Assembly: GCF_000226095.1 (NCBI RefSeq)
Contig: NC_016476.1
Location: forward strand, 2,542,001-2,606,000
Length of the DNA: 64,000 nucleotides
Direction: 5' to 3'
Origin: Thermothelomyces thermophilus ATCC 42464
Taxonomy: Eukaryota; Ascomycota; Sordariomycetes; Sordariales; Chaetomiaceae
In this document: in pieces, positions 57,559-58,983 of the stretch
Layout: each line of letters starts with the position of its first letter
How positions within the stretch are numbered: the first letter of the stretch is position 1
Notes under the pieces: generated by a model
What the model saw: the letters and a program-made list of their open reading frames with translations, nothing else
Told to the model about the DNA's origin: nothing
Database searches by the model: none
Program-made: the position numbers and the translations under genes

Positions 57559-58983
57559 TCAAACAGCACCACGCGGCTTCGCCTTCGACTTTGCCTTCTC
57601 CTTCTTCTCCTCCTTGAGCTTCTTCTTCTTGGCTTCGTTCTGCTCTTCGAGCTTGCGCTTGTGCGCGGCCTTTTCCTCCTCGGTCTTGGGTAACACCTTG
57701 AAGAAGCCTTCAATGCGCGATTGCTGCGAACTCTTGAGATTCTTCTCGAGGCGCGCGCCACCCGCGCGCACCCGGTCCTCCGAGAATCCCTTTTCGTGCA
57801 CCAGGAATTGCACCAGCCCCTCGATGTCGGGCTTCTCCCACTTGAAGTCGCACAGCGGGTCGTCCGCCTGCCGCACGTCAGGCGAGAAGAAGAGCTCGCG
57901 CGCGTCCTCAAACGGCCAGTCGTCCGGTACCGTGTAGCGGCCCTTGGGGTCATTCTTCATGAACTCAACGACCTTTTCCAGGCTACCGTGTTCGCGGATC
58001 AGTTTGAGCGCTGTGGACGGGCCCACTTTGGGGATCGGGTCGAGATAGTCACAACCGAGCAGAATGCAAAGATCGACAAACTGGAACGACGAGAAAGGAA
58101 ATTAGCATCTGAACATCTAAAACGATAGATGGGATAATAAACAAAGTACAAGATATTTTTTTTTTGGGAAGAAAAGAAAAGAGGCTACTTCAGGAGCCAT
58201 CGGGGTCACCAACCTGCTTCCTGTCCATGTTCAGGCCCTCCAAGACTTTGCTGACATGAATTTCTTGAATCGGCTCCTTGCGCTGCTCGCTGAAGGTAAG
58301 ATGACGCAGCAAGATCGGGGCGTCAAAGCAGAGGGTATCCATATCCTCGCTGGCGGCAGCGTAGACCTTGCCGGCGCGCGCTAGCACCGCGCATTGGGCC
58401 TCGGCCTCGGTGGGCGCGACGATGTAGGGGACGCCCATCAGCTTGAGCAGCCGCTGGCACTCGGCGTTGTGTTCCTTCGTCACGCGCACCGTCCTTCGTG
58501 AGAACTTCTCCACGTCTTCGGACGTACCCGTCTCCTTTGCCTCCTCGAGCCCCTCGGTCGCCTCCTGTTTCCTCTGGAACCGCCGGGCCAGCTCGCCGGA
58601 CTTGAGCTTCGGCGGAGCGCCGTCGAAAACGTAGAGCGGCTTGATCCCGTTGTCGACCATGCGAAGCGTGCGGTAAAACATTCCCATCAGGTGTGACGTC
58701 GTCTCGCCGCTTTCGTTCATGAGTTGTTGGCCGTCTGATCGCACGGCGATGAGGAAGCTGTAGATGCTCATTGAACTATTGTCCGGTTAGATGAGGCCTC
58801 TTGCGCATCGGATTGTATGCTAGATCGTACGCATCCTATGATCTGTTAGCCTGAAAGCCAGAAGTCGCCGACGGAGGAACTTACAATTGCGACCTTGCGG
58901 CCGAACTGATTCTTGATGTCGCCTTCCTTGATGGCATCCGGAGCTTCCTCCTTGATGATGGAGAAGAGTTGTTTTATACCCAT
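57559..58983 (-). CDS. fen1: flap endonuclease 1 (Fen1/Rad27)
   Basis: Proposed five-part join gives four exons plus a microexon: complement(join(57559..58080,58214..58775,58831..58835,58885..58983)) with the 5-nt exon 58831-58835, encoding 395 residues. Fen1 removes 5' flaps during Okazaki-fragment maturation and base-excision repair. Catalytic acids are all present: Asp34 (VAI-DASMSIYSF, codon supplied by the microexon), Asp in YVFDGAPPKL, Glu pair in APTEAEAQCA, Asp pair in AASEDMDTL and Asp in LLGCDYLDP. A PCNA-binding PIP box (QSRIEGFF) is followed by a Lys-rich tail. Other introns: 49 bp, 55 bp and 133 bp. The start at 58983 (MGIKQLFSIIKEEAP) has Gly2, whose exposed N terminus is used in catalysis. 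Length matches the usual 380-400. Confidence 0.95.
58831..58835 (-). other. fen1: 5-nt microexon of fen1 (GATGC)
   Basis: On the coding strand the sequence reads CTAACAGATCATAG|GATGC|GTACGA. The five bases complete ATT-GAT-GC and are followed after the next intron by T-TCA-ATG, giving Ile-Asp-Ala-Ser-Met, the invariant Fen1 sequence. Both flanking introns (58836-58884, 49 bp; 58776-58830, 55 bp) have a GT donor, a CTAAC branch site about 10-15 nt before the AG, and AG acceptor. Skipping the 5 nt would shift the frame. Confidence 0.85.

What the first reader, a model, noticed from the sequence alone, without database searches (positions are those of the whole stretch)
58776..58884. A 5-nt microexon supplies the catalytic Asp34 codon of Fen1
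Direct splicing of the first exon (ending VAI) to the exon beginning at 58775 cannot give the invariant VAIDASMSIYSF in any frame. The 109 bp between contain ATAG|GATGC|GTACGA, and using those five bases as an exon restores D-A-S exactly. Both flanking introns (49 and 55 bp) have their own GT, CTAAC and AG. Asp34 is one of the metal-binding residues, so skipping this exon would frameshift and inactivate the enzyme. Exons this short are rare and standard gene finders usually miss them.
Basis: partly seen in the sequence, partly recalled or inferred. Interest (0 to 1): 0.85.

Follow-up and report, generated by a model that had tools for sequence, protein, structure and literature searches.

The report
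Five-base exon encodes FEN1's catalytic aspartate
An essential DNA-repair gene in a fungus is split so that a separate exon of only five bases carries a metal-binding residue of the enzyme; protein records suggest that many related fungi share this arrangement and that gene-annotation software often gets it wrong.

Summary
On the minus strand FEN1 runs exon 58983-58885, intron 58884-58836 (49 nt), exon GATGC 58835-58831, intron 58830-58776 (55 nt), then the rest; spliced, it is a 395-aa FEN1. Enumeration found no single excision that gives VAIDASMSIY and exactly one two-intron solution, the 5-nt exon. The gene is single copy. Skipping the exon gives a stop after 183 codons.

Fungal genomic DNA was out of reach, so conservation was tested through deposited protein models. 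Of 260 relatives, 53 lack an intact VAI-DAS-M motif; errors peak at D34 and A35, while S36 mismatches in 1. In 18 of the 53 (16 species, 14 genera) the wrong residues match AG|GATGC or GATGC|GT read in one of three frames. Traces are common in Sordariomycetes and lichen-forming lineages, but rare (1 of 21) in the mainly Eurotiomycete set. All 32 records held only by lgn/jgi sources are intact.

Tiny exons are a known kind; a 1-nt exon is published in Fusarium (PMC12940212). I rate this a new, apparently deeply conserved member. No RNA reads from this organism were available.

The parts
58885..58983 (-). FEN1 coding exon 1 (99 nt, MGIKQLF...KVAI, ends in phase 0)
58836..58884 (-). intron 1, 49 nt, GTAAGT...CTAAC...ATAG
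58831..58835 (-). 5-nt microexon GATGC: Asp34 codon and first two bases of Ala35
   Evidence: only two-intron solution found; traces in 18 of 53 broken relatives' models
58776..58830 (-). intron 2, 55 nt, GTACGA...CTAAC...ATAG
58214..58775 (-). FEN1 exon 3 (562 nt), starts with the third base of Ala35, then SMSIYSF
58081..58213 (-). intron 3, 133 nt, ordinary GT-AG
57559..58080 (-). FEN1 exon 4 (522 nt) with stop codon

Best explanation
The 109 nt are two short GT-AG introns flanking a constitutive 5-nt microexon that supplies Asp34, a metal ligand of FEN1, and two thirds of Ala35. Splice sites are most likely paired across each short intron (intron definition), so the exon itself need not be recognised. 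The introns are probably removed one after the other, because a 5-nt exon leaves little room for splicing complexes on both sides at once. I guess that intron 1, with its GTAAGT donor, goes first and recreates an ordinary long exon in front of GTACGA. The exon was probably present in an ancestor of many filamentous ascomycetes (leotiomyceta) and is held in place by the catalytic residue it encodes. Shown: the sequence anatomy, the uniqueness of the splice solution, the traces in relatives' protein models. Inferred: inclusion in mRNA in this species, order of splicing, single origin and age.
For: One and only one solution by enumeration. The product is a complete 395-aa FEN1 with all seven active-site carboxylates at human numbering. 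Single copy. In 260 relatives, insertions fall after residues 33, 34, 35 in 21, 6, 12 records (next site, 269: 6); D34 and A35 mismatch in 31 and 30, S36 in 1. 18 of 53 broken models carry residues matching AG|GATGC or GATGC|GT; among the 42 segments bounded by VAI and SMSIY, 17 match against a mean of 1.03 and maximum of 6 in 5,000 shuffles. I wrote the match rule after seeing the first two sets of proteins and before fetching the third, where 5 of 7 broken models match. The congener's model reads DAYDLA, as does this window's microexon read on into intron 2. The 32 records held only by lgn/jgi sources are all intact, against 53 broken of 228 others (one-sided Fisher p 4e-4); 24 of the 30 examined lie on contigs only 144-1052 nt longer than the coding sequence, which I take to be cDNA.
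Against: No RNA-seq or genomic DNA of relatives was available. 35 of 53 broken models show no trace; in the second, mainly Eurotiomycete set only 1 of 21 does (P0178). Two models (P0161, P0175) keep the length but have Tyr or His at position 34, and one (P0201) loses VAI and keeps DAS; a missed GATGC does not explain these simply. 6 of the 30 lgn/jgi records lie on contigs of 3.6-8.4 kb, which might be genomic DNA of fungi without these introns. The records are cluster representatives from capped lists, not a random sample. In potato invertase the second intron leaves first (PMC4674806, passages), against my guess on order.
Confidence: 0.9

Rival explanations
1. The microexon is real but alternatively spliced: skipping or retention is regulated and lowers FEN1 output through nonsense-mediated decay.
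For: Skipping, retaining intron 1 and retaining intron 2 give stops after 183, 45 and 52 codons; the skip stop lies 109 nt before the last junction. A glucose-dependent 20-nt microexon is reported in Trichoderma Xlr2 (PMC11121469, passages).
Against: Nothing here shows a skipped transcript or a regulatory signal; early stops are expected of any frame-breaking 5-nt exon. FEN1 is a housekeeping enzyme (recalled).
Confidence: 0.07
2. The real gene model has no microexon: a single intron, or translation from Met37, as several deposited relatives' models say.
For: Four relatives' models begin at Met37 (P0032, P0081, P0120, P0228) and others join VAI to SMSIY with unrelated residues. Six single introns leave an open frame here.
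Against: None of the six keeps Asp34, nor does a start at Met37. Intact twins exist for several broken models: same strain, P0115 and P0122, 99.4% identical downstream; same species, P0138/P0178, P0179/P0219, P0040/P0090, P0121/P0130, 100% identical downstream.
Confidence: 0.02
3. The 109 nt are one nested intron (stwintron) or a damaged copy of the gene.
For: Stwintrons are known in Pezizomycotina (listing only).
Against: A stwintron joins the outer exons directly, and no contiguous removal gives VAIDASMSIY. No second FEN1 was found in the genome, and the rest of the frame is intact.
Confidence: 0.01

Closest known systems
1-nt exon of Fusarium CYP621A (PMC12940212; parts 1 and 2 of 3 read)
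   Same: Ultra-short frame-breaking exon inside an invariant motif of a filamentous ascomycete gene, missed by gene models, found from phase mismatch and conservation
   Different: 1 nt, in a P450 of Fusarium, with read support in two species; here 5 nt, a metal-binding Asp of an essential nuclease, traces over several classes, no reads
20-nt microexon of Trichoderma Xlr2 (PMC11121469; passages)
   Same: Non-multiple-of-3 microexon in a filamentous ascomycete, absent from the annotated model
   Different: 20 nt and reported as regulated by glucose; regulation not shown here
Conserved plant microexons such as APC11 and VPS55, and a 5-nt exon in rice (PMC8831610, passages; PMC4674806, passages)
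   Same: Tiny conserved exons, often misannotated; a 5-nt case exists
   Different: Different genes and kingdom; validated by RNA
4-bp microexon of human MPC1 (PMC9929638; passages)
   Same: Constitutive frame-breaking exon of almost the same size
   Different: Long flanking introns and exon definition; here introns of 49 and 55 nt

Membership tests
Constitutive microexon | Internal exon of 15 nt or less between two introns with their own GT, branch site and AG | tested here: met
Constitutive microexon | Needed for the conserved protein, no other junction works | tested here: met
Constitutive microexon | Included in mature mRNA of this species | not testable with these tools
   no RNA reads; only indirect support from 32 intact lgn/jgi records of relatives
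Constitutive microexon | Conserved at the same place in relatives | tested here: met
   indirect, through protein models; genomic DNA sought without success
Constitutive microexon | Not skipped under any condition | not tested
   needs RNA
FEN1 | XPG family nuclease with seven active-site carboxylates D34, D86, E158, E160, D179, D181, D233 | tested here: met
   residue list from PMC6009646
Stwintron (spliceosomal twin intron) | Outer exons join directly after nested removal | tested here: not met
   no contiguous removal gives VAIDASMSIY

The most novel reading that the evidence does not exclude
The microexon is an ancient control point shared across leotiomyceta: its inclusion becomes inefficient under stress and the frame-shifted skip transcript is destroyed, which tunes how much active FEN1 the cell makes.
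Probability: 0.07. Interest if true: 0.75.

Novelty: new member of a known kind. Interest (0 to 1): 0.47.

Why it matters
It is a clear case of an essential gene whose active site hangs on a 5-nt exon, and the arrangement seems to have lasted across several classes of filamentous ascomycetes although a merged exon would be simpler to splice. FEN1 would make a good test bed for how fungal spliceosomes handle back-to-back splice sites. There is also a practical side: 53 of the 228 relatives' records that do not come only from lgn/jgi sources are broken at the catalytic site, so this place can serve as a benchmark for gene-finding pipelines.

Tried and rejected
Single introns, introns with unusual ends and stwintrons were excluded by enumeration. 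A start at Met37 was rejected because it removes Asp34. A second FEN1 that could relieve the need for the exon was sought and not found. DNA of relatives was sought in viral contigs (no match) and genome contigs (14 stretches matched a pattern, none encodes a relative). Searches for print, open-access library only: 'microexon' with 'fen1' gave 0 papers. At least two of 'flap endonuclease', 'microexon', 'micro-exon', 'erroneous gene model' gave 120 papers with 15 listed; the one listed paper that holds 'flap endonuclease' is a Schistosoma expression study, not opened, and others may stand among the 105 not listed. 'Microexon' with 'fungi' (61 papers, 30 listed), with 'Aspergillus' (18, 15 listed), 'micro-exon' with 'ascomycete' (3) and 'microexon' with 'pombe' and 'intron definition' (2) showed no listed title or abstract opening on this exon. 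PMC8624252 and PMC4084796 were looked at by passages and added only that small exons are hard to predict. One automated trace was dropped by hand as false: P0201, where K of GRK precedes DAS (flagged, excluded).

Full report
What was checked. The window lies on contig 5 of a genome of 38,744,216 bases in 7 contigs. Size and chromosome number fit Thermothelomyces thermophilus ATCC 42464 (recalled, not given by a tool); the nearest listed protein is from Thermothelomyces myriococcoides at 97% identity. The gene on the minus strand is FEN1. The finding's coordinates, intron lengths (49 and 55 nt) and splice signals are as stated.

Is the 5-nt exon forced? Exon 1 ends in VAI at phase 0; the next clear exon opens with the last base of an Ala codon, then SMSIYSF. 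Within 58983-58700, every contiguous removal of 20 nt or more (starting at least 60 nt into the coding sequence, any end dinucleotides) gave no way to write VAIDASMSIY. Every pair of GT/GC-AG introns gave exactly one way, with exon GATGC at 58835-58831. Six single introns leave an open frame, but none keeps Asp34. With the microexon and an ordinary third intron (58213-58081) the gene gives a 395-aa protein with all seven active-site carboxylates at human numbering (residue list from PMC6009646, passages). Residues 1-379 align with solved flap endonuclease 1. Skipping the microexon frameshifts to a stop after 183 codons, 109 nt upstream of the last junction; retaining intron 1 or 2 stops after 45 or 52 codons.

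Chance. Mononucleotide shuffles of the 109 nt gave a rescuing exon in 65 of 200,000 trials. In the 64-kb window AG-GAYGC-GT occurs 4 times on both strands, once with branch-like sites for both introns. Introns 1 and 2 each have one branch-like site, CTAAC, with 10 and 11 nt after its A.

One gene only. The 284-nt region has one match in the genome. The protein finds FEN1 in exons at this locus and distant paralogues elsewhere. Matches on contig 1 to FEN1 residues 23-109 and 98-326 are both listed with an open frame of 1247 codons, so that paralogue seems to have no intron pair at the matching place.

Conservation, by an indirect route. No fungal genomic DNA of relatives could be fetched. Deposited protein models carry traces instead. 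Three protein searches (one listed each, of 3,904, 4,972 and 3,945 hits) gave 260 distinct records, which are cluster representatives and not a random sample. 207 hold an intact [VI]AIDASM motif and 53 do not: 25 of 120 in the first set, 21 of 118 new in the second, 7 of 22 new in the third. On a joint alignment, insertions fall after residues 33, 34 and 35 in 21, 6 and 12 records; the next site (269) has 6. D34 and A35 mismatch in 31 and 30 records, S36 in 1, M37 in 1. At the ordinary intron 3 there are insertions in 2 and 1 records, after residues 221 and 222. A single misjudged intron would not so regularly lose D and A while keeping I33 and S36; a missed 5-nt exon would.

The traces. In 18 of the 53 the wrong residues are what AG|GATGC or GATGC|GT would give: 6 read from the exon into the donor (DA then Y, F or C), 5 from the acceptor side (K or Q, then DAS), 5 read RMR, 2 read GCV. 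Among the 42 segments bounded by VAI and SMSIY, 17 match, against a mean of 1.03 and a maximum of 6 in 5,000 residue shuffles. The rule was written after I had seen the first two sets and was fixed before the third search; only anchored it more tightly. By set the matches are 12 of 25, 1 of 21 and 5 of 7 (from the lists). The third set is therefore a fresh test that passed; the second, mainly Eurotiomycete set gives little support beyond the place of the breaks. The T. myriococcoides model has DAYDLA, which is what this window's microexon gives when read on into intron 2. The 18 records come from 16 species in 14 genera: Sordariomycetes 10 records, Leotiomycetes 2, Eurotiomycetes 1, Lecanoromycetes 3, Candelariomycetes 1, Thelocarpales 1. 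I checked the lineage of six of these species by tool; the rest follow from genus names (recalled). The other 35 show no trace; they include four models that start at Met37 (P0032, P0081, P0120, P0228), two with Tyr or His in place of Asp34 (P0161, P0175) and one that loses VAI and keeps DAS (P0201), which I cannot explain in detail.

Annotation artefact rather than biology. Several broken models have an intact twin. For the same strain, the UniProt entry for Uncinocarpus reesii is intact (P0115) and the NCBI model is broken (P0122), 99.4% identical downstream. Within one species, Aspergillus udagawae P0138 and P0178, A. alliaceus P0179 and P0219, Apiospora marii P0040 and P0090, and Coccidioides immitis P0121 and P0130 are 100% identical downstream. 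So this site has in effect been put right in some records without, as far as my searches show, the exon being described. The 32 records held only by lgn/jgi sources are all intact, against 53 broken of 228 others (one-sided Fisher p 4e-4). Of the 30 examined, 24 lie on contigs under 2.3 kb that are 144-1052 nt longer than the coding sequence, which I take to be assembled cDNA (inference); the other 6 lie on contigs of 3.6-8.4 kb and could be something else, for example genomic DNA of fungi that lack these introns.

Mechanism. For a 5-nt exon, recognition across the exon is hard to picture. The authors of the Arabidopsis 1-nt exon argue for intron definition with the two introns removed one after the other (PMC4674806, passages). 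Introns of 49 and 55 nt suit that. The human 4-bp MPC1 exon is, by contrast, reported to use exon definition (PMC9929638, passages), so intron definition here is an inference. I favour intron 1 leaving first because its donor is GTAAGT and the second is GTACGA; this is a guess, and in potato invertase the second intron leaves first (PMC4674806).

Comparison with what is known. Microexons are a known kind. In fungi a 1-nt exon of Fusarium CYP621A with read support is published (PMC12940212, parts 1 and 2 of 3 read), a 20-nt exon in Trichoderma reported as regulated (PMC11121469, passages), and exons down to 6 bp in Phanerochaete P450 genes (PMC1184071, passages). Misannotation of conserved microexons is documented in plants, where a 5-nt example is shown (PMC8831610, passages). 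I found no paper on the FEN1 case (open-access library, lists partly capped). What is new is the gene, the catalytic role of the encoded residue, and the apparent spread over several classes.

Limits. No RNA from this organism; no genomic DNA of relatives; the age rests on traces in protein models and on assuming one origin. As far as their names show, no Dothideomycete or earlier branch was among the records that I noted. Seven Hypocrealean genera in the first list (Fusarium, Clonostachys, Cordyceps, Epichloe, Ophiocordyceps, Geosmithia, Metarhizium; order recalled) have intact models, which does not say whether they keep the introns.

Noticed in passing
listings: Many fungal flap endonucleases bear the name 'Elongation of fatty acids protein 2'. 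The likely cause is that FEN1 is also an old name of the yeast gene ELO2 (recalled): a name passed on by mistake.
   Followed up: no
P0161 (Aspergillus phoenicis) and P0175 (Aspergillus avenaceus): These models keep the length of 395 aa but have Tyr or His in place of the metal ligand Asp34. Probably wrong models, but how they arise from a missed 5-nt exon is not clear.
   Followed up: no
P0201 (Aspergillus flavus): This model loses VAI instead of DA (GRK-DAS): the gene finder seems to have kept the microexon but shortened exon 1.
   Followed up: no
58805-58809: A second GATGC lies in intron 2, without AG before it and with GC after it; a look-alike without splice signals.
   Followed up: partly
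L009 and L011 (own genome, contig 1): An XPG-family paralogue is listed with one open frame of 1247 codons across the region that matches FEN1 residues 23-109, so it seems to have no introns at the microexon's place.
   Followed up: partly
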